A stretch of 37,045 bases of DNA from an uncultured Clostridia bacterium (lineage in GTDB: Bacteria; Bacillota; Clostridia; Christensenellales; UBA1242), in NCBI GenBank assembly GCA_946630785.1, contig CAMOZC010000004.1, forward strand, positions 1-37,045, read 5' to 3'. A program made the translations under genes and the position numbers. A model generated the notes under the pieces. It saw only the letters and a program-made list of their open reading frames with translations, did no database searches and had not been told where the DNA came from. Positions 4,877-33,195 of this stretch are shown here, one piece after another (position 1 is the stretch's first letter; every line of letters starts with the position of its first letter).

Positions 4877-5350
4877 TCATTTGGTTTCCAGATGATAGTC
4901 CACCAATTTTGCTTCCAGTCCACCACTGAATTTAAAAAAGCCATTCAACGAACCACGGTTTTCAATCAGCCAAGGCAACCACATTTTATCCGTTGGATAC
5001 ATTTGTTCCCATGGTATCTGTTTTAAATCAAACCATGACGGGCGCATCTCTTCGGTTTCGCAAGGTTCACCCGCGAATTCGGTCGCAGTAAAGACGTGTA
5101 CATCTTCCAAAACATGTTCGCCTTTAACGTACATATCAAAACGCAAAACCCCATGTTTCTGATAATTCGTTGGCGTCACGTTGATTTCCTCCATGGTTTC
5201 ACGGAGCATTGCTTGCTCAACAGTTTCGCCGGGTTCCAATTTGCCACCAATGCCATTATAATTTCCCGCACCAAAACCGCGTTTTTTCATTGCCAACAAG
5301 ATTTGGTTTTCTTTGAATAAGTATAACAATGTTGTTTGAATTTCTTTCAT
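4877..5350 (-). CDS. Nudix hydrolase (MutT / 8-oxo-dGTPase-like)
   Basis: Nudix box GGKLEPGETVEQAMLRETMEEINV. Confidence 0.9.
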   Translation of the reverse strand: MKEIQTTLLYLFKENQILLAMKKRGFGAGNYNGIGGKLEPGETVEQAMLRETMEEINVTPTNYQKHGVLRFDMYVKGEHVLEDVHVFTATEFAGEPCETEEMRPSWFDLKQIPWEQMYPTDKMWLPWLIENRGSLNGFFKFSGGLEAKLVDYHLETK

Positions 5351-5408
5351 ATGATTCGCTACAGTATAAATCATCTTTCCCGTTTTTCCAATCAGTTAAA
5401 GTTGCAGT

Positions 5409-7007
5409 TTATTCATTACGGAACAAAACGATGATGTCCGATTTCCCATAACCATTGGGTTCAAAGAAGTTGAATGGTAACGTACTAGATCTCACATCGT
5501 TTTCGACATAAGGATGATAATATTGTTCTAAGAATTTACGATTCAGATCGTATTTATGACGATAGGTAATTACAAAATCACACAGTTTGCTACTGATGGT
5601 TTGTTCAAAGGCGTCAAACATCTCTGGAAAATCTTCCTTAGCAAAACAGTTTTCAGCATAATAACGGACATTCGGCACTATGCCCGCAGCATTATAAAAT
5701 CCACAGTCCGCCATCAAATAACAGAACAAAGTTGCTGGCTTTTCTGCAGTTTTGTTATACTCCCCAATCATATCTGCCACCACCAGTTGTGCATATGCTT
5801 CGCGCGGACGATTAATCTCCACCCGATTCGTAACCATCGGTAACGCAGCAAAAAAGCTGATTACGACGATAATTACCGTCCCTACTATTTTAAGCGTTCG
5901 GCGTTGTATCGTGATTTCTACAGCCTGCAACATACTTGACACAACTTTCAGAGCGTAAATCACACCCAAAACCGCATAAGCATGCATTGGCAAATAATAA
6001 TAAAAATAACCGCAGAAGAACCCAATCATAAACCAGGTTGAAAGCGCAGCAATTAACAATAATTTACCACTTCGGCGTTTCCAATTATGCACGGCAAAAC
6101 AAATTAAACCCCAAATCAACACGATGATATAATATGGACCAAGTAAAAATGACTGACCAAAATTCTTCAGCGGATTCACGTAAGATACGCTATTATCAGT
6201 TTGCGTATTACCATTGTAGTTGCCAATATTAACAAGGAAATAAACATTAAATAAATCATCCAGGGCGCCCAGTGCTGCGAAACAAATTATAACTGGAATC
6301 GCAACCAAAACAAAACCACCCAACATCACCCCGCAGCCACGCAAAACGACTTTCAGTTCACGGTTCTTCGCGTTAATCACAAACCAAATTATCAACGGTA
6401 CCAAAAAAAATTCTAGCATAGTGAATTTAACCCAAAACAAAATTCCCATACAAATGCCTAATGCTAAATCACGTTGCCAAGTCACAACTTTGTTGTCCAT
6501 GATAAAATCCAAGAAGCACAATAATCCATACGCAAAAATCGGGAAGCAAAACTCTTCCACGCAAGAACCTTCTAAGCCACGTGCAAGATTTGTACTCAAT
6601 ACCATCATCATCAAAGGCACGACCGCCAAACTCAACCACGGCGATAAAAATTTACGCGCAATACGGTAACAAAAGAACAAGAACAAACTGACACTTAAAA
6701 TTTCCAAGCACCATACGACAAACTGCGAATTTGGGAACAAGCACGCCACCGCAAAAACCGCATAAACAATCGGACCCTTTTGCTCAAACAAATCACGGTA
6801 TGGGACCTTACCGGCAAGAATACCATGACCCATTGTGGTAAACCATTGGTAATCACAATGCGGATTAAAAGTATGGATTGGCGAATTCAGACCATAGAAA
6901 AACATAAAAAATAACGACACAGATAAACAAACTAAATAAACCACCCACGGGCGGAAATCTTTAGCAACTGACTGAATTGGTGTTTCAGTTTCGTTCACAG
7001 TATCCAT
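5409..7007 (-). CDS. GT-C family membrane glycosyltransferase (ArnT/PMT-like)
   Basis: 532 aa, ~10 or more hydrophobic segments, HCDYQWFTTMGHGILAGKVPYRDLFEQKGPIVYAVFA region typical of GT39-like enzymes. Confidence 0.65.
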   Translation of the reverse strand: MDTVNETETPIQSVAKDFRPWVVYLVCLSVSLFFMFFYGLNSPIHTFNPHCDYQWFTTMGHGILAGKVPYRDLFEQKGPIVYAVFAVACLFPNSQFVVWCLEILSVSLFLFFCYRIARKFLSPWLSLAVVPLMMMVLSTNLARGLEGSCVEEFCFPIFAYGLLCFLDFIMDNKVVTWQRDLALGICMGILFWVKFTMLEFFLVPLIIWFVINAKNRELKVVLRGCGVMLGGFVLVAIPVIICFAALGALDDLFNVYFLVNIGNYNGNTQTDNSVSYVNPLKNFGQSFLLGPYYIIVLIWGLICFAVHNWKRRSGKLLLIAALSTWFMIGFFCGYFYYYLPMHAYAVLGVIYALKVVSSMLQAVEITIQRRTLKIVGTVIIVVISFFAALPMVTNRVEINRPREAYAQLVVADMIGEYNKTAEKPATLFCYLMADCGFYNAAGIVPNVRYYAENCFAKEDFPEMFDAFEQTISSKLCDFVITYRHKYDLNRKFLEQYYHPYVENDVRSSTLPFNFFEPNGYGKSDIIVLFRNE

Positions 7008-22443: not shown

Positions 22444-25400
22444 TTACTTTTTTATAAAGTTTATATCTGGTAAGAGTACTAAACTTTCTTGTTCATCATC
22501 TTGACCTTGCCAATAGACCAAGAAACGAATTTTTGCATCTTTAACAACATAGCCTTTTTCTTTTAATTTTAAAATATCATCAATTGCTTTTTTTGAAAAC
22601 ATTGCGACCTTTGTTCTTTTTCCACTGATGTCAGCAAATAAACAATTATCGTCAACTTCAAGTAAATTACCTGCTCGTAATTTCTGATATAAGGCCACTT
22701 TGCCTTTAAAATAGTTTAAATAAACATCCTTAAAACCAAACTGCAAAGTAATTTCATTTGGTATTTCATATTCATGATTGTCAATATTGAATTGATCCGC
22801 ATTGTCTTTATAATTGTCTAATTTAGTACCTGTATAATGAATTACTAAATTGTTTTTAGCTCTTGTCATACCAACATAAACTGCTCGACGTCCAGCATCA
22901 GTATCTAGTTTATAATTATCCAACAAGATAAACACATTATCAAATTCCTTGCCTTTTGAACGATGTAAAGTTGAAACAATAATTGCTTCTTTATCGCTAT
23001 CAACATAATCAGACAAGTTAGACTCCAAAATAAATTCTTTTAAATCCGAAAAATATTTAGTTCCTGCCGCAGCGTAATTTTGCAATAGTAATAAACAATT
23101 CTGCAAAATATCACTTTGAGCAAAATTATTTTTTAGAACATTAATAGCACGATTCCATAAATCATCATCGATTACCGGTGAACTAATACAACATTTAATA
23201 TAATTAATCAAATATCTAAATTCTAATAAATTCACTAATCTAAATCCCTCATTACTTTGAACTAATCGTGCTTTAATTCCTTGTTTAATTAGTAAACCTA
23301 AAATTCTTAAAGCTTCTTCGTTTGTACCCGACAAAATCGCAATATCTTTTTTTAAACCAGAGTTAACTACATCTTTAATTAAAGGTATTTCAATTGAGCC
23401 ATGGTCATACTTTACCAAGCGAACAAAACCGTTGTTAGCCTTGGTGGAAAAAATCGGATTTGTTTTTAAACGATTGCTAATTGATGGTAAAAAACCATTA
23501 GCAAATTTAACAATATTTTGTGAACTTCGATAGTTTTGTAAAAGTTCGTATTTTTTAGCATTTTCGCAATTAATAAATGATTCGAAATATTTTGAATCTG
23601 ACCCTCGGAATTCATAAATATTTTGGTCATCATCACCAACAAGAATTACTCTAATATCCTCATTCTTATCAATAATAGTTTTTACAAGATTAAAATCTTT
23701 TTCATCCATATCTTGCGCTTCATCAATTACAAGCACTTTTTTTGTAATACTTTCAATTTCAATTTCATCATTAACAATCATTTCAGTTACTTTACCAACT
23801 ACATCGTCGATGTCTTCCAAATTACCAACCTTACCTAATAAATCAAAACAATATGAATGGAAAGTTTTAATATCGATGAAATTGATTGCTCCACCAATTA
23901 ACTCACGCAATCTCTTTTTAAATTCGAGTGCTGCCGTTCGTGAAAATGTTAACATCAATAATTGCTCATATTTCACATCTTCTAACTGCACTAATGAAGC
24001 TAATTTATTTACAAGGATACGCGTTTTACCACTACCAGGACCAGCGGCAACAACAATAAATTTAGAATCTTTATCAGAAATAATTGCCGACTGTTCATCA
24101 GAAAGTTTATTATAAATTTCATCATATTTCTCTTGAGTTATACTACGATTTATTTGTTCCCAACGACCCTTAAAGTATTTTTCGATGAATGCTTGATAAT
24201 CTAATTCAAAATAATCATTAACGAATTGAAGTGCATGGTTTGGATTTTTTATCATTAAATTTGCATATTCACCAACAATATGAATCTGTTGAATTTTGTG
24301 TTGGTAGAATGTTTTTAACATTTGATAATCATTTTGCTTGAATTGTATTTTATTATCTTGCACTAATCGTTTAATAGTCATACCAGCATAAGTAACCAAG
24401 AAACCACCATCTAATTTAAGTGAATCAATTTTTAATAAGTATAATAATGCATTCTCAATTTCACGATAATCTGCATCTTCGTGAAATAACGAAATTTCGT
24501 TGTTATAATTTTTCTTTAATTCCAAGACCGAAAACATTACAGGGGTTTCATCCGACGAATACTCCATTCCCCCTGTTTGCGTAGATTTCTGATCTTGGCG
24601 TAATGCCCAATTTACAATTTGTTTCTTTTGGTTTTCGTGAGATAAAAGGAATAAATATCTAATCACATTTTTAGCAATATCATTACGTTTTTTTATTTGA
24701 CTTTCAAATTCGGTATATGGAACTTTTAGTTTTATCCAACGATTTTCTTGGTTATCAATTTCTTTTTCAATCAATCCGTTAATTGTCCAATAGTAGATAA
24801 TTGTCTTTAAAATTTTTATCGTTGAATATTCAATACCTGATTTAATTGCCTTATCATTGATTTCTTTATAATTAATTGAACTAACTATGCTTTGCTCAGC
24901 AAACAATTCGGCTAATAAGAAATTTTCAATTTTGATATAACGATCCAAAATATTTAACGATTTATTTTCTGAATCTGAACTTTTAATTCTTGCTGACAAA
25001 TCTTTATCATCAGCTAATATATTAAGTTCTCTTAAAATATTAACATATTTAATTACATCTTTAACTTTCATTGAAAGCAAATCGGCAATATAATCAACAC
25101 GAGTTTCCGTTGATATTGATGAATCATCTTGATTTACTGGCTTATTAATGTTTTTCTGTGTAAATAGCTTACTTAAGATCCTTCTTGATGAAATCTTATC
25201 TGCTTCATTGAGTAATGGTGAATTTTGGATAATTTGATATGAATCAATCATACTTTTACGAATAATACTCGTAGCATAAACTCGTGGAACGTTAAAACCT
25301 CTTTCGATATATCCAGCATACTCTAAAGTAGCCAAAGCTGTTCTGACGCGTGTTTCAAGTTCTTTTCCATCTTCGCTCCATCCAGCCTGTCTAGCGATTT

Positions 25401-27306
25401 CTAATGCTGTCTTTGAAATAGTTTTCTTATCTTTTGTTAAAAATTTAATTGCACGCCAAATTTCACGAACTTCATCAATAGTTAGCCGAGTTTGATTTAA
25501 AAGTGTAAAATGTTTATCCAAATCATTATTATTAAATAAGACAAAACATTCAGCTTCATCTTTTTCATTTCTTCCAGCCCTTCCAGCTTCTTGTACATAA
25601 TCCTCCAATGAACTTGAAATATCATAGTGTACAACTAATTTTACATCACTTTTATCAACCCCCATTCCGAAAGCTGAAGTCGCAACAATAACTTGAATTT
25701 CGTTTTCTATGAATGCATTTTGAGTTTCAATCTTGACATTTGGTTCCATTCGGCCATGAAATGGTAAAGCTGCGAACCCATCATTTTTTAACCTTTTAGC
25801 CAATTCAACCGCACGTTTTGTTCTTGATACATAAACAATCGTTGGACAATTACGAGATTCAATTAGCATTCGTAAACTTTGATATTTTTCATCCTCAGTT
25901 GCTTTGTGAATCACAGAATAATGTAAATTTTTTCTTGATGTGTTTGTTGTAAACAACTCTAATTCTAAATTTAATTTACCCTTAAAGTAACTAACAATAT
26001 CATTAATAACTTTTTGCTTAGCGGTCGCAGTAAAACAAGAAACTGGAATGGTTTGAATAGATTTTTTCTTTTGACATAAGCGTTTAATAAAATCTCCAAT
26101 AAACAAATAGTCAACACGGAAGTCCTGTCCCCAAGAAGAAAAACAATGCGCTTCATCAATTACAAACCTAGCGATATCTCTTGATAATAAAAGTTTTTCG
26201 ATTGTTCTTGAGCGTAAAGATTCAGGAGAAATGTATAAAATACTAGCATCACCACTTAAAACACGCTCAATTGCACGGCTTCTTTCTAATGGACTTAATA
26301 ATCCATTAATTGTAACAGCTTCGGCAATTCCTTTTCTTTCTAAATTATCAACCTGGTCTTTCATTAAAGATTGAAGTGGTGAAATTACCACAGTTAATGC
26401 TTTTGTTGTTTCCGCTGCAATTAAAGCTGGTAATTGAAAGGTTAATGATTTACCACCACCCGTAGGGAACACTGCTAATAAAGACTTTCCTTCAACCGCC
26501 GCTTTAACTGTTTTCTCTTGCAGTGGCTCACCATTGTATTTACGGAAATTGTCATACTTAAAATATTTTTTTAAATAACTTTGTAAATTAAAAGCATTCC
26601 GACAATATTCACATAAATAACAAGGCGTATTTCTTAAAACATTTATCACGTGTACAATTTGTGGATATTGGAAATATACCCACGACGGAGTTAATGATTT
26701 TTTATCTTTTGCATTAATAATTGCCAAAGCATATGCTAATTCAATTGGATAAGTATTTACTAAAGATTGAATATCAATATTCTCGCAAATTAACCCATGG
26801 AAAAAAGTTTTAATATCGTAACAAATATTATTTGATTTTGGAGTATTAACATAACTAAGAAAACCTGTAAAATGTGGATCCTTACTTAACAAGTACCCAT
26901 AGATACCTTTCAATTGATAATCAAGTTTAAAAAAATTACTAATTTCATCATAAAATAATTCACTAGCCTTTTTAGAGTCGGCAACAGGATTATTTAATTC
27001 ATCTTTTGTTAACTGCTCATCTTTTAATAATTTATGATATGGTCTAGTTGGAAATAATAATGGTGAAACATATAAAGTATCTATAAATATAAAACTGTCA
27101 TTTTGATATTTAATTGCGTCTTGCACATATTTCAAATCGTGTTCAATAATGTTGTGTCCACAAAGATATTTTTTGTTGCCAATAAATTCTCTAAATTTAG
27201 ACAATGAATTTTCGTGGAAAACACTTCCTGCTTTAATTGCCCCAATATCAAGCAATTTGGAACCATCACTTGTTGTTTCCGTGTCAAAAAAGATAACGTC
27301 ATCCAT
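22444..27306 (-). CDS. DnaQ-like exonuclease - RecQ helicase - UvrD/PcrA helicase fusion
   Basis: FFDTETTSDG / CGHNIIEHD (exonuclease); FPTGGGKSLTFQLPAL, VIDEAHCFSSWGQDFR (RecQ); AAGPGSGKTRILVNKL, VIDEAQDMDEKDF, GDDDQNIYEFRG, LLQNYRSSQNIV, VSTLHRSKGKEFDNVFILL, YVGMTRAKNNL (UvrD). Confidence 0.92.
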   Translation of the reverse strand: MDDVIFFDTETTSDGSKLLDIGAIKAGSVFHENSLSKFREFIGNKKYLCGHNIIEHDLKYVQDAIKYQNDSFIFIDTLYVSPLLFPTRPYHKLLKDEQLTKDELNNPVADSKKASELFYDEISNFFKLDYQLKGIYGYLLSKDPHFTGFLSYVNTPKSNNICYDIKTFFHGLICENIDIQSLVNTYPIELAYALAIINAKDKKSLTPSWVYFQYPQIVHVINVLRNTPCYLCEYCRNAFNLQSYLKKYFKYDNFRKYNGEPLQEKTVKAAVEGKSLLAVFPTGGGKSLTFQLPALIAAETTKALTVVISPLQSLMKDQVDNLERKGIAEAVTINGLLSPLERSRAIERVLSGDASILYISPESLRSRTIEKLLLSRDIARFVIDEAHCFSSWGQDFRVDYLFIGDFIKRLCQKKKSIQTIPVSCFTATAKQKVINDIVSYFKGKLNLELELFTTNTSRKNLHYSVIHKATEDEKYQSLRMLIESRNCPTIVYVSRTKRAVELAKRLKNDGFAALPFHGRMEPNVKIETQNAFIENEIQVIVATSAFGMGVDKSDVKLVVHYDISSSLEDYVQEAGRAGRNEKDEAECFVLFNNNDLDKHFTLLNQTRLTIDEVREIWRAIKFLTKDKKTISKTALEIARQAGWSEDGKELETRVRTALATLEYAGYIERGFNVPRVYATSIIRKSMIDSYQIIQNSPLLNEADKISSRRILSKLFTQKNINKPVNQDDSSISTETRVDYIADLLSMKVKDVIKYVNILRELNILADDKDLSARIKSSDSENKSLNILDRYIKIENFLLAELFAEQSIVSSINYKEINDKAIKSGIEYSTIKILKTIIYYWTINGLIEKEIDNQENRWIKLKVPYTEFESQIKKRNDIAKNVIRYLFLLSHENQKKQIVNWALRQDQKSTQTGGMEYSSDETPVMFSVLELKKNYNNEISLFHEDADYREIENALLYLLKIDSLKLDGGFLVTYAGMTIKRLVQDNKIQFKQNDYQMLKTFYQHKIQQIHIVGEYANLMIKNPNHALQFVNDYFELDYQAFIEKYFKGRWEQINRSITQEKYDEIYNKLSDEQSAIISDKDSKFIVVAAGPGSGKTRILVNKLASLVQLEDVKYEQLLMLTFSRTAALEFKKRLRELIGGAINFIDIKTFHSYCFDLLGKVGNLEDIDDVVGKVTEMIVNDEIEIESITKKVLVIDEAQDMDEKDFNLVKTIIDKNEDIRVILVGDDDQNIYEFRGSDSKYFESFINCENAKKYELLQNYRSSQNIVKFANGFLPSISNRLKTNPIFSTKANNGFVRLVKYDHGSIEIPLIKDVVNSGLKKDIAILSGTNEEALRILGLLIKQGIKARLVQSNEGFRLVNLLEFRYLINYIKCCISSPVIDDDLWNRAINVLKNNFAQSDILQNCLLLLQNYAAAGTKYFSDLKEFILESNLSDYVDSDKEAIIVSTLHRSKGKEFDNVFILLDNYKLDTDAGRRAVYVGMTRAKNNLVIHYTGTKLDNYKDNADQFNIDNHEYEIPNEITLQFGFKDVYLNYFKGKVALYQKLRAGNLLEVDDNCLFADISGKRTKVAMFSKKAIDDILKLKEKGYVVKDAKIRFLVYWQGQDDEQESLVLLPDINFIKK

Positions 27307-27342: not shown

Positions 27343-27519
27343 ACACATGGGAAAAAACTTTTCATATATATTTACCAAGAATTGGGTTTTCATTAATACA
27401 AATATATTTTGAGCCATCTAATACTTCTAAAACATTTCATAAAGAAACGTACAAATTTAAATATATCATATTATATGTTGTAATACTATAGGTCCATGAT
27501 TAATACAAAAGGAGTTAAA

Positions 27520-28062
27520 ATGTTTTGGATTAAGTTTTCATCCCTACTAAGTAATTTTTTACCTTTTGGAATATATATGTTGATTCTAAGTTTTACAGAA
27601 ACTAACATTTTTGTTTTAAGAATCATCTTATCTATTGTTGTAATTATTCAAATAATTTTAGCTTTTACACTAACAATAAGCATTAAAAATGTAATAAAAC
27701 ATTACTCCTATAGTGATTCTGAATATAGAATTATTAGAATTTCACGAGATAGGACTTCTCCGTTAAATTTTTTTGTTACAAACATTTTCCCGCTAATAGC
27801 ATTCGATTTTAATAACACAGGACTTATAGTTTTTACAATAATAATGATTTTTATTATTGCAATTCTATTTATTAGAAATAATTTATATCTATATAATCCA
27901 TTTATAGAACTATTTAATTGGAAATTATATAATATAAAATTAGAAAAAAATGATGATAACAATAGCAATAATATTTTTTCAAAAACATATATTACGAATA
28001 TCGTTGTACCAATAAACTCAACAATAAAAATTAAAGATTTTGAAGATGATATATGCTTCTAG
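27520..28062 (+). CDS. 4-TM membrane protein, KwaA-like candidate
   Basis: SD AAAAGGAG before MFWIKFSS (ORF-track start 27496 is upstream of the SD); four hydrophobic segments; LYNPFIELFNWKLYNIKL after TM4; adjacent to DUF4868-like gene. Confidence 0.5.
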   Translation: MFWIKFSSLLSNFLPFGIYMLILSFTETNIFVLRIILSIVVIIQIILAFTLTISIKNVIKHYSYSDSEYRIIRISRDRTSPLNFFVTNIFPLIAFDFNNTGLIVFTIIMIFIIAILFIRNNLYLYNPFIELFNWKLYNIKLEKNDDNNSNNIFSKTYITNIVVPINSTIKIKDFEDDICF

Positions 28063-29019
28063 TCAATAATTGCATTCCCAGGCGCATCATAAACTTGCTC
28101 CGTATTAACAAAATCTCTTTTATAATCATTACATAAAAATTTATTAATAATTTTTCGCTTTTCATTATTATCAAGTATCAATAAACCGGTACTATCTTTT
28201 TCGATATTATACTTCTTTAAAAAATTAACAACATTAGCATTGTTATTCTTTAATGAATTTAATTTAGTTTTATCAAAATTATTATAGCAGTAATAATTCT
28301 TACCAAAAGAAGAATATTCTTTAAGACTTTCAAATGAATCTTTTGTAAATATTCCTGATTTTGAAATTTCACTCATTGCTTCATTCATTTGCTCTCTCAA
28401 ACTGTTTTCAAAACCAAATATAGATGTAATTGAATTACCAAAAAGGTAAACTTCTTTATTAAAAAGACATGCAGACAAAGACATTGGAAATTTCAAATTA
28501 TACACTAACGAAGAAGTTTGTTCATCACTATCATTTATCATAAAAATAAACTTTGGAGTTTTAACATAAGGAATCCCTTTCGCGAATAAAAAGACATCCT
28601 GACTATTATATTTAATATGCACAACTATACAGTTTGCCACTTTCTTTATTTCAGAAAATTTTTGAACATTTGCTTTTGTAATTTTACAAACACAATCGTT
28701 TATTTTGGAAGAATAAGATGAATCTTGATTCAAATCCACATAATCAATTGTTGTTTTATTATTGCTAAAATTAAAAGGTTTTATTTCATTGCATTTACTA
28801 AGATTAGAATTAGCATTTGACAGAAGCGTTTTTGTATAAAGTTTAGCATCTTCCGTTTTTACGTTTATTCGATAACTGGGAAAGTTAAACTTATTTTCTT
28901 TTTTATCATATTTACTTGCAAAAGCATACACAGACACTTGCAAACTTGAATCAAAACCATTCACAATATCTTGTATTGTTTTTTCAATATATTTTTTTTA
29001 ATTCATTAATATCCAACAT
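28059..29019 (-). CDS. DUF4868/KwaB-like protein with apparent frameshift in an A8 tract near the 5' end
   Basis: KFPMSLSACLFNKEVYLFGNSITSIFGFENSLREQMNEA and C-terminal LLILDNNEKRKIINKFLCNDYKRDFVNTEQVYDAPGN follow the DUF4868 pattern. SD GAGGAG plus ATG at 29019 encode MLDINELKK, then a 1-nt shift at 28992-28999 into YIEKTIQDIVNGFDSS. ORF track shows only 28059-28964 (GTG start). Confidence 0.6.
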
Positions 29020-29083: not shown

Positions 29084-30397
29084 TTATTTACAAATACAAA
29101 ATACAGCATACAAAGGTACAGATTTAATATTATTTTCAAAACCAAAGTTTTTGCCAGAAATACGAATTGCATACTTAGGTTTCATTGTCGATATGTACAC
29201 ATTCAAACTTTTGGAACGAGTGTTATCATTAGCTTTAACCTCAATCGGAATAATATCAACACCAATACGGGTAATAAAATCAATTTCGGCGTCAGATTTA
29301 CTCGTCCAGTAATATAAATCAAATTCATTAGCGATTAACTGATTGTTCACATAATTTTCCGTTAAACCACCTTTAAAATCGTTAAAATCACTATTTGGAT
29401 TTAAAACATCTTCAGGTAAAATTTTTTGAATAGCGCAACATAAACCAACATCATTCATGTAAAACTTAAAGTCATCCAAAGCCCGATAAGCTTCCAACGG
29501 TAATTTAACCTGCTCTAAACGATACAATTGACTAGCTATACCGACCGTACAAATCCATTTAATGCTTTGTTCGAAATCGCGAGAACGTCCACCTTTTTTC
29601 ACATCTGAGTATTTAAATTTTTTATTTTCCTTAGCTAATTGCGTAGAAATATTTTCAAACACTAATTTTGTCTTCGGAACTTCTGTAGCACTATTGTATT
29701 TACTCATATCGTCAAAATACGATTCCAAAATCGCGCGCTGTTTAATTCTAACTAATTCATAGTTACCAGTACGCACAAAGACGTCCACTACTTCAGGCAT
29801 ACCCCCTACAAATAAATATTGACGATATAAGTTTAAAGCATCTTCATGAAACAATTTTGGTAATGGCTTATTTGTTTGGTAACTGCTTTTTATCTCATTA
29901 ACTAAAACACTATAGTTATCATGTTGAGCTAATAAGAATTCTTCAAAATCAAGTGGTAACATGGTTTTGAATTGAACCTTACCCACAGGGAAAGAATATT
30001 GATTGCGATTAACTGCTATGCCTAACAATGACCCCGTAGCGATAATATGATACTCATTAGCACGTTCGTTAAAATATTTTAACGAAGTTAACGCTTCAGG
30101 ACAAGCTTGAACCTCATCAAAAATAATTAAAGTATGTCCAGGAATAATTTCTTTTTTCTTATAATAACCAATTCGCTGCAAAATTGTTTTTGGTTCCAAA
30201 GTATCAAATAAACTTTTTAATTCTTTTTCCTCTTCAAAGTTGCAATACACGAAATTGTTATATTCATGCTTCCCGAATAAATTAACAATATAAGTTTTAC
30301 CTACCTGTCTCGCACCCTGTAAAATCAATGGTTTACGTTCTGGGGATGCTTTCCATTCTAATAAAAATTGATAAATTTTCCTTTTAATTACTTCCAT
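29084..30397 (-). CDS. AAA_14 / DUF4143 family ATPase
   Basis: LILQGARQVGKTYIVNLF (Walker A), LIIFDEVQACPEALTSLKYF (Walker B), GSLLGIAV, C-terminal DUF4143 DFITRIGVDIIPIEVKANDNTRSKSL. Confidence 0.9.
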   Translation of the reverse strand: MEVIKRKIYQFLLEWKASPERKPLILQGARQVGKTYIVNLFGKHEYNNFVYCNFEEEKELKSLFDTLEPKTILQRIGYYKKKEIIPGHTLIIFDEVQACPEALTSLKYFNERANEYHIIATGSLLGIAVNRNQYSFPVGKVQFKTMLPLDFEEFLLAQHDNYSVLVNEIKSSYQTNKPLPKLFHEDALNLYRQYLFVGGMPEVVDVFVRTGNYELVRIKQRAILESYFDDMSKYNSATEVPKTKLVFENISTQLAKENKKFKYSDVKKGGRSRDFEQSIKWICTVGIASQLYRLEQVKLPLEAYRALDDFKFYMNDVGLCCAIQKILPEDVLNPNSDFNDFKGGLTENYVNNQLIANEFDLYYWTSKSDAEIDFITRIGVDIIPIEVKANDNTRSKSLNVYISTMKPKYAIRISGKNFGFENNIKSVPLYAVFCICK

Positions 30398-30686: not shown

Positions 30687-31628
30687 TTAGTTTCCGTTTA
30701 CCTCCTTTTCTAAATTTTTTGCTAAGTTCGTGAACGTATAATCGTATTCACGATATTCATAATTTTTAAAAACGAAATTAGGTTCGCGTTTTTGAGCTTC
30801 AGTATTAATATAAACCAACTCATTAATAAACAACGCATTATCAAGTCTTTCGTTAAAATCATCAAAATTTATCTCTTGAGCTTCTAAATACATATCCTGT
30901 TTATCATCAAAATTCATCGCTTGATAACAAATATCATATTTAGACACATACCCTAATGGATAAAAATAAAATTTTAAGTAAGTATTTAAAAGAATACATT
31001 TATCCAAAAGATTTGAAACATCGTCTTGATACGGCATATTATAGTTCGTCGCAATAATCCGAGTTTCACTTTGACGATAATTACTCGACATTGAATATGA
31101 AATATTTTCCTCATTGAAAAACCTTTCGATAAAATCAATAACAGCAGTATTGGTTACATTTTTTAACCTGATCAGAACCGAACCAACAAACCTTGATTTA
31201 TTTTGAATTCCTTTCAGCTGTTTAAAAAAGCGAACACCTGAAGCCGAATCCATGAAATTAACTATATTGGGTTTTATTGGTTTTTGTCTTTCTTTTACAT
31301 CACCATCAACTAACTCGATTTCATAATGATTTTCAACTTTAATGATTTCAAATTTTTTATCATTAGCTCTAAACACCGGAAATCGATCAGCTTTCTCATC
31401 ATTTGTAAGAATATGACAACAAACCAAGTTATAATCTGCTGTTTTACCTCCCCTGCTTCGCGGCAAGATGTGATCCACATTCCAACCAAATTCACTATTA
31501 CGATCGTCGTAAGCACCTTTTGCAATAATTCGTCCAGCAAAATCTTTTACTTTCGTTTCATTGCCAAAGGACTTATTCCAGAGTCGCATAGCGGTTTCCC
31601 TATTTAAATCCATAAATTTTTCTTTCAT
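30687..31628 (-). CDS. HNH endonuclease domain protein
   Basis: GWNVDHILPRSRGGKTADYNLVCCHILTNDEKADRFP is an HNH motif; C-terminal ~190 aa unrecognised. Confidence 0.8.
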   Translation of the reverse strand: MKEKFMDLNRETAMRLWNKSFGNETKVKDFAGRIIAKGAYDDRNSEFGWNVDHILPRSRGGKTADYNLVCCHILTNDEKADRFPVFRANDKKFEIIKVENHYEIELVDGDVKERQKPIKPNIVNFMDSASGVRFFKQLKGIQNKSRFVGSVLIRLKNVTNTAVIDFIERFFNEENISYSMSSNYRQSETRIIATNYNMPYQDDVSNLLDKCILLNTYLKFYFYPLGYVSKYDICYQAMNFDDKQDMYLEAQEINFDDFNERLDNALFINELVYINTEAQKREPNFVFKNYEYREYDYTFTNLAKNLEKEVNGN

Positions 31629-32133: not shown

Positions 32134-33195
32134 TTACATTCGATTTGATATTTCATTTTCTAATTCTTCTTTTGATAATTCATTCATCGTTCTTATTGTG
32201 TGATCTTCTAATTTTCCTTTTTTCAGCGAGGCCAACGATAAAACAGCTATTTTATAATAATAAAAATTACCTAAGCTATCTTCAGCTTCCAAATAAATTT
32301 TTTCAGGATTATTAAAAAGGAATTCAAAAACAACAACTCTTTTTGGCAATACTATTGTGTTTCCCGTTAAATTAAACCATTTATTATCATGGAAAATTTT
32401 ATTTAATTTAAATACTGAACAATCAGAATTATCAATTAAAAATCTGGTTTTTAATTTATAAATATCATTATATTCCTCATCTGAAAAACAAGTTTTCATC
32501 CCTGACAAAATTTTAGGTTCTTCTAAAATTAAACTATAATCGAAAATAGGTTTTGCCTTTTTGATTTCTTTTTTTTCTTCTTCTTGTTTTGCGCTTTTGA
32601 TAGTCCAAGCAACACCCCCAAGTGTTAATCCACCACCAACAATTGCAGAAAAAATAGTAATGAGTGAATTAAAAATTGTATTATTATCAGTACCATAACT
32701 TGCAAATACAATTGTTACATAACCAATAACAACAAAAGCTATACATAATAGAATTACAACATTCAACTTATTTTTTAAACAAAACACGCTATAAAATGTA
32801 GTATACAAAATATATACTTCTAAAAAGAAAATTCCAATGCAATAAACTATATTTCCATAAGATGAATTATCGTTATAATACAAAAAATAAGCATAAATAA
32901 AAAATACGAACGATACAACTAATGGCCAAACAATTTCGACTTTAATTATTTTTTTAAATGAAGTGAACAAGACAAACGCAACCCAAACTGTAAATAAAAT
33001 TGCTATTGTTATTTTTAGCGCAAAATTAAATCCAGTATATTTAAAGTTTTCTTCTAAAAATGTTAAAAACATTAAAACCAAAGATGGAATTATAAAATAT
33101 AAATAAATTTTATCAGATGACTGATTTAATTTTTCAAAAAAATTAAACTTTTGCTTTGGCTTTTCTTCTTCCTTGATTGTATTTTTCTTCTTCAT
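32134..33195 (-). CDS. multi-TM membrane protein with C-terminal soluble domain
   Basis: About six hydrophobic segments followed by a ~150-aa soluble region; no family recognised. Confidence 0.7.
   Translation of the reverse strand: MKKKNTIKEEEKPKQKFNFFEKLNQSSDKIYLYFIIPSLVLMFLTFLEENFKYTGFNFALKITIAILFTVWVAFVLFTSFKKIIKVEIVWPLVVSFVFFIYAYFLYYNDNSSYGNIVYCIGIFFLEVYILYTTFYSVFCLKNKLNVVILLCIAFVVIGYVTIVFASYGTDNNTIFNSLITIFSAIVGGGLTLGGVAWTIKSAKQEEEKKEIKKAKPIFDYSLILEEPKILSGMKTCFSDEEYNDIYKLKTRFLIDNSDCSVFKLNKIFHDNKWFNLTGNTIVLPKRVVVFEFLFNNPEKIYLEAEDSLGNFYYYKIAVLSLASLKKGKLEDHTIRTMNELSKEELENEISNRM

What the first reader, a model, noticed from the sequence alone, without database searches (positions are those of the whole stretch)
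28059..29019. KwaB-like gene carries a one-base shift in an A8 homopolymer: error, phase variation, or slippage
Seen directly: minus strand AGAGGAGAAATATAAATG (SD spaced ~8 nt from ATG at 29019) opens MLDINELKK, then the coding strand has A8 (28992-28999). In frame 0 translation stops at once (ATA TAT TGA). Dropping one A gives MLDINELKKYIEKTIQDIVNGFDSSLQVSVYAFASK, running seamlessly into the long ORF. The ORF's own frame has TAA at 29000-28998 upstream and only a GTG (28964) with no SD. So the annotated ORF start is almost certainly wrong. The A8 tract could be a sequencing/assembly error, an inactivating mutation, a phase-variable switch, or a site where RNA polymerase slippage restores expression.
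Basis: partly seen in the sequence, partly recalled or inferred. Interest (0 to 1): 0.75.

Follow-up and report, generated by a model that had tools for sequence, protein, structure and literature searches.

The report
Frame-shifted KwaB-type defence gene
A probable anti-phage gene in a small uncultured bacterium is thrown out of frame by one extra A in a run of eight, most likely an ordinary recent mutation (or, less likely, an assembly error) that switches the gene off, and there is no sign of a purpose-built genetic switch.

Summary
On the minus strand, AGAGGAG sits 8 nt before ATG 29019. Nine codons later an A8 tract (28992-28999) leads frame 0 into TGA (28986-28984), while the next frame is open for 312 codons.

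One homologue, 61% identical (L002, another MAG), is intact. It starts at exactly the same ATG, encodes the 'missing' N-terminus and has no A8. So the true start is ATG 29019 and the window copy carries a +1 lesion; the GTG start is wrong.

The tail-to-tail neighbour is KwaA-family. The broken gene is a very divergent DUF4868/KwaB relative, seen only by profile-profile comparison.

In 385 conserved genes tested against a same-genus genome, none of the 150 A/T tracts of 7 or more crossed by an alignment is out of frame. This is the only real frame split at a homopolymer found by a targeted scan of 1446 strand-tracts. A8 is unremarkable at 25% GC.

Slippage rescue would need a deletion on poly(A), which published E. 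coli RNAP reporters did not detect.

Verdict: most likely a recent frame-disrupting insertion (about 0.6). An assembly or read error is possible (about 0.28). A programmed or phase-variable switch is unsupported (about 0.08). Interest is low.

The parts
28984..29019 (-). Leader reading frame that begins at the true start codon (ATG 29019) and ends at a premature TGA: MLDINELKKIY*
   Evidence: sequence; AGAGGAG at 29034-29028; same start codon position in homologue L002:4926
28992..28999 (-). A8 tract at which the reading frame changes
   Evidence: homologue L002 encodes the same segment without a long A run
28059..28997 (-). Open frame of 312 codons plus stop: rest of the KwaB-type gene; the GTG at 28964 is its first standard start codon
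   Evidence: 61% identity with the L002 protein with one single-residue gap; dN/dS about 0.18
27520..28062 (+). KwaA-family membrane protein gene, convergent with the KwaB-type gene and sharing 4 bp (CTAG, both stop codons); likely start ATG 27520 with AGGAG rather than ATG 27496
   Evidence: PADLOC KwaA E 1.7e-17, NCBIfam KwaA E 6.8e-17, below its cut-off; L002 homologue starts at the equivalent MFW
29084..30397 (-). Upstream AAA_14/DUF4143 ATPase (PADLOC PDC-S01), neighbouring gene of the defence region, ends about 65 bp before ATG 29019

Best explanation
This is a KwaB-type effector gene of a divergent, tail-to-tail KwaA/KwaB pair, broken by one extra base in an A tract nine codons after its start. 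The lesion is most likely a real, recent replication-slippage mutation (A7 to A8) in the sequenced population. It leaves the KwaA partner intact and the KwaB-type protein off, or at most present in traces. Traces could come from reinitiation at GTG 28964, which would lose the first helix, or from rare +1 ribosomal slippage of the Lys tRNA on AAA before the rare AUA codon. The mutation could revert at the ordinary homopolymer slippage rate, but nothing indicates a dedicated switch. Shown: the frame break, the ancestral start, the otherwise intact coding frame, past purifying selection. Inferred: that the base is real, that the product is lost, that the pair is antiviral.
For: Sequence read directly. 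The intact homologue has the same start, N-terminus and convergent kwaA neighbour but no A8. The rest of the gene shows no other stop or frameshift against a homologue at dS about 1.5 and dN about 0.27, so the lesion is recent relative to that split. Homopolymer errors look rare in this assembly: alignments of conserved same-genus proteins cross 150 A/T tracts of 7-9 in frame, and none of the 3 frame breaks found among 385 conserved proteins lies at a tract of 7 or more. A genome-wide scan of 1446 strand-tracts for this layout returned only this gene and one false positive, surE, which has its own start. Frameshifted, silent restriction-modification genes are reported as common in natural strains (PMC11514479). 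AUA is rare here, 5.7 per 1000 codons against 55.8 for AUU.
Against: No reads, no second genome of the species and no RNA data were available, so the base itself is not verified. The genome is a 68-contig draft. The clean conserved genes bound the error rate only loosely (0 of 150 gives up to about 2% per tract of 7 or more; 0 of 18 gives up to about 15% for tracts of 8 or more).
Confidence: 0.6

Rival explanations
1. Assembly or sequencing error: the genome has A7 and the gene is intact and expressed.
For: Draft assembly of 68 contigs. The gene is otherwise perfectly preserved and under past purifying selection, which is what an error in a working gene looks like. Homopolymers are where indel errors fall.
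Against: 0 of 150 A/T tracts of 7 or more crossed by conserved-protein alignments are out of frame; the scan for the same layout elsewhere found no other real case.
Confidence: 0.28
2. Phase-variable or slippage-driven switch: the A8 is a contingency tract, or RNA polymerase or ribosome slippage restores some full-length KwaB-type protein.
For: The tract lies near the 5' end, where off-switches are most effective, and long A tracts are somewhat more frequent in the first tenth of this genome's genes (14 of 68). P-site tRNA-Lys can re-pair perfectly one base on, with rare AUA waiting.
Against: The tract is absent from the homologue. Its length is ordinary at this GC. A one-base loss is needed: in E. 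coli, poly(A) runs gave no detectable rescue by deletion, and no activity at all below eight As (PMC6260861), and in-vivo transcription errors in A/T runs of E. coli and Buchnera are mainly insertions (PMC5574713). A -1 ribosomal shift, the usual direction on A tracts, meets a stop after 10 codons in the third frame (read).
Confidence: 0.08
3. The gene naturally starts at GTG 28964 (or another weak start) and the upstream match is irrelevant.
For: The GTG is in frame and about 20 nt after the leader stop, so reinitiation is conceivable.
Against: The homologue begins at the upstream ATG and shares the N-terminal segment. The GTG has no Shine-Dalgarno sequence, while ATG 29019 has a strong one. 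The GTG start would remove the first predicted helix (residues 4-20 of the L002 model, low confidence).
Confidence: 0.04

Closest known systems
Kiwa anti-phage system (KwaA membrane protein plus KwaB, DUF4868)
   Same: Adjacent KwaA-family gene; the broken gene matches KwaB proteins in profile-profile comparison over the C-terminal part (hhalign probability 96%, E 3.5e-9); similar length (about 318 aa)
   Different: No direct hit to any KwaB or DUF4868 model even at E 10, nor to solved KwaB chains from the two-member profile. The genes are convergent with a 4-bp overlap instead of co-directional. The KwaB-type gene is frame-shifted in the window.
Homopolymer phase variation (contingency loci)
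   Same: Frame-changing mononucleotide tract near the 5' end of a gene of an accessory defence region
   Different: The tract is not conserved, not longer than background, and no alternative allele was observed
Transcriptional slippage rescue as reported in Buchnera, Blochmannia or Citrobacter tssM
   Same: A-run at the frame break in an AT-rich gene
   Different: Needs a deletion rather than the usual insertion; A8 is at or below the reported threshold for bacterial RNAP; no RNA evidence

Membership tests
Kiwa (KwaA + KwaB) | KwaA membrane protein | tested here: met
   PADLOC KwaA models, best E 1.7e-17; NCBIfam KwaA E 6.8e-17 but 61.9 bits against a cut-off of 100
Kiwa (KwaA + KwaB) | KwaB protein with DUF4868 domain | tested here: inconclusive
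   No hit to PADLOC KwaB or Pfam at E 10; profile-profile match to seven related KwaB-type proteins, probability 96%, E 3.5e-9, residues 182-313. A profile that also includes those KwaBs finds solved KwaB chains (E 1.4e-12); the two-member profile alone does not
Kiwa (KwaA + KwaB) | kwaA and kwaB adjacent | tested here: met
   Adjacent in the window and in L002, sharing 4 bp
Kiwa (KwaA + KwaB) | Co-directional operon | tested here: not met
   Convergent in the window and L002; co-directional in L128, L130, L131, L138, L139
Kiwa (KwaA + KwaB) | KwaA-KwaB membrane supercomplex; anti-phage activity | not testable with these tools
   Needs experiments
Homopolymer phase variation | Tract changes reading frame of the gene | tested here: met
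Homopolymer phase variation | Tract kept in relatives or unusually long for the genome | tested here: not met
   Absent in L002, the only close relative found; A>=8 at 0.47 per kb in genes below 28% GC
Homopolymer phase variation | Both alleles seen | not testable with these tools
   No reads and no second genome of the species
Transcriptional slippage rescue | Tract length and direction permit restoration | tested here: not met
   Requires a one-base deletion (or two-base insertion); poly(A) deletion slippage not detected for E. coli RNAP (PMC6260861); the organism's own RNAP was not tested
Transcriptional slippage rescue | Mixed-length transcripts | not testable with these tools
   No RNA data

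The most novel reading that the evidence does not exclude
The A8 is a functional low-rate switch (replication slippage, or +1 ribosomal slippage at AAA AAA AUA) that keeps the DNA-binding effector of a divergent, convergently arranged Kiwa-type pair mostly off.
Probability: 0.07. Interest if true: 0.5.

Novelty: new member of a known kind. Interest (0 to 1): 0.22.

Why it matters
It corrects the gene model (true start 29019; the gene is frame-shifted, not short). It shows that this defence pair is probably non-functional in the sequenced population, so defence-system surveys that count the intact kwaA or the long ORF would overcall it. It also documents a KwaA/KwaB-type pair in convergent arrangement, with an effector too divergent for current models.

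Tried and rejected
1) Search for the same species' other alleles: no match in 40 relatives (including the nine other held genomes of the genus), and no close relative in 392 class or 399 phylum genomes. The two weak class hits were a DHH-type phosphoesterase-like protein (L003) and a KwaB-type protein (L004).
2) Viral contigs, phages and plasmids: nothing.
3) AlphaFold model of the intact homologue: mean pLDDT 49 with two sequences, too poor for a fold search.
4) A second candidate homopolymer split (contig C1, near base 39485) is surE with its own ATG, a chance hit.
5) Three frame breaks in conserved genes against the sister genome are not at A/T tracts of 7 or more.
6) Promoter scan upstream of 29019: no more sites than shuffles.
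7) The first own-genome pattern search used a mistyped motif and is not evidence of absence.

Full report
WHAT WAS CHECKED. The window is one whole contig (C4, 37,045 bases) of an 895-kb draft genome in 68 contigs, 89% complete. The minus strand around 29019 reads AGAGGAG-8 nt-ATG, then TTG GAT ATT AAT GAA TTA AAA AAA ATA TAT TGA. The A8 tract is at 28999-28992 and the stop TGA at 28986-28984. The frame one base on is blocked by TAA 29000-28998 and then open for 312 codons to 28059.

WHERE THE GENE REALLY STARTS. The genome collection holds one close relative, L002, a contig of another MAG ('Clostridiales bacterium isolate MAG-R023'). Its gene (4926-5882) is intact, 318 codons, and begins MLKTDELKSFIKTTCTTIKDK. 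The two pieces of the window gene either side of the tract read MLDINELKK and YIEKTIQDIV. They fit that start without a gap: 8 of 19 identities, 1 of 20,000 shuffles as good. The nine residues before the tract on their own are matched as well by only 0.2% of random draws. Over the 311 aligned codons the two genes differ by one single-residue gap and no stop, with dN/dS about 0.18. So ATG 29019 is the ancestral start, and the window copy departs from it by one frame step at the A8. In L002 the same codons read GAA CTA AAA TCA TTT, so the tract is not conserved.

IS THE A8 SPECIAL? No. The genome has 130 A/T tracts of exactly 8 and 23 longer ones, and 59 sense A8 tracts inside ORFs of at least 100 codons. 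Genes below 28% GC carry A>=8 at 0.47 per kb, and this gene region is 25% GC. Long sense A tracts are somewhat over-represented in the first tenth of genes (14 of 68).

IS IT AN ASSEMBLY ERROR? This can only be bounded. I used 475 proteins from 560 kb of a same-genus genome (G006), of which 385 have a match here. Their alignments cross 132 A/T7, 17 A/T8 and 1 A/T9 tracts in frame. Of three frame breaks found, none lies at a tract of 7 or more. A scan of 1446 strand-tracts for 'SD + ATG, frame stops after tract, neighbouring frame open for at least 100 codons' gave this gene and one false positive, surE. Systematic homopolymer error is therefore unlikely, but a single error at low coverage cannot be excluded.

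CAN SLIPPAGE RESCUE IT? The frame needs one base less (or two more). In reporter tests E. coli RNA polymerase showed no activity on runs shorter than eight A, and no rescue by deletion on the poly(A) runs examined (PMC6260861). Transcription insertions in E. coli and Buchnera lie mostly in A/T runs (151 of 157 in Buchnera), while few deletions do (16 of 57 in Buchnera; rare in E. coli) (PMC5574713). A -1 ribosomal shift, the usual outcome on A tracts, enters the third frame and meets a stop after 10 codons (read). A +1 ribosomal shift is mechanically possible: P-site tRNA-Lys can re-pair with AAA one base on, and the next codon AUA is rare here (5.7 per 1000). Nothing shows that it happens.

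WHAT THE GENE IS. The convergent neighbour (27496 or more likely 27520 to 28062, plus strand) matches KwaA models. The broken gene matches no KwaB, DUF4868 or other family directly. Profile comparison of its two-member family with seven KwaB-type proteins found in the same class gives probability 96%, E 3.5e-9 over the C-terminal part. Of those seven, five lie next to a KwaA-family gene (L128, L130, L131, L138, L139). A nine-member profile recognises solved KwaB chains (E 1.4e-12), but the two-member profile alone does not. So 'works like KwaB' is likely, while 'is a KwaB' is not established by the standard models. The published model of Kiwa has KwaA tetramers in the membrane carrying KwaB dimers that bind injected DNA (review PMC12904381), and KwaB is reported to have an anti-phage effect independent of KwaA, with KwaA thought to be needed for its controlled expression (PMC11514479). 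On that model, loss of KwaB removes the effector and leaves the membrane partner.

VERDICT. The best account is an ordinary recent +1 insertion in a poly(A) tract that inactivates the effector gene of a divergent Kiwa-type pair (0.6). Read or assembly error is the main rival (0.28). A switch or recoding site is the interesting but unsupported reading (0.08).

Noticed in passing
window 27496-28062 (+) and 28059-29019 (-); L002:4926-5882 (+) and 5879-6412 (-): KwaA-type and KwaB-type genes are convergent and overlap by 4 bp through palindromic stops (CTAG in the window, TTAA in L002) in both known members; other class members are co-directional in either order.
   Followed up: partly
L132-L135 and L137 (same-family genomes of genus g32): A KwaA-family membrane protein sits next to or near gyrB in several same-family genomes, with no recognisable KwaB next to it: an apparently orphan KwaA relative in a core-gene neighbourhood.
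   Followed up: no
window 22444-27306: 1620-aa protein with a DEAD/RecQ-like helicase half and a UvrD-like helicase half (best PADLOC models DpdF and GajB), and an N-terminal stretch that looks like an exonuclease (by eye).
   Followed up: no
window 30687-31628: HNH protein (Pfam HNH_4) whose HNH stretch weakly matches Cas9d (NF049971, E 8.9e-9 over 36 residues, far below the cut-off).
   Followed up: no
window 32134-33195; L002:2919-4544: Membrane proteins sharing a GGGLTLGGVAWTIK motif (35% over 85 residues) lie in both Kiwa-type neighbourhoods; no family model matches.
   Followed up: partly
L008:7149 and L022:9472 (contigs C7 and C1 of the same genome): A dispersed repeat in which CTTACAGTATA is followed by C8 in one copy and C11 in the other: a length-variable poly(C) that is a better phase-variation candidate than the A8.
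   Followed up: no
window 27496 versus 27520: The KwaA-type start is probably ATG 27520 (AGGAG just upstream; the L002 homologue starts at the same MFW), 8 codons inside the longest ORF.
   Followed up: yes
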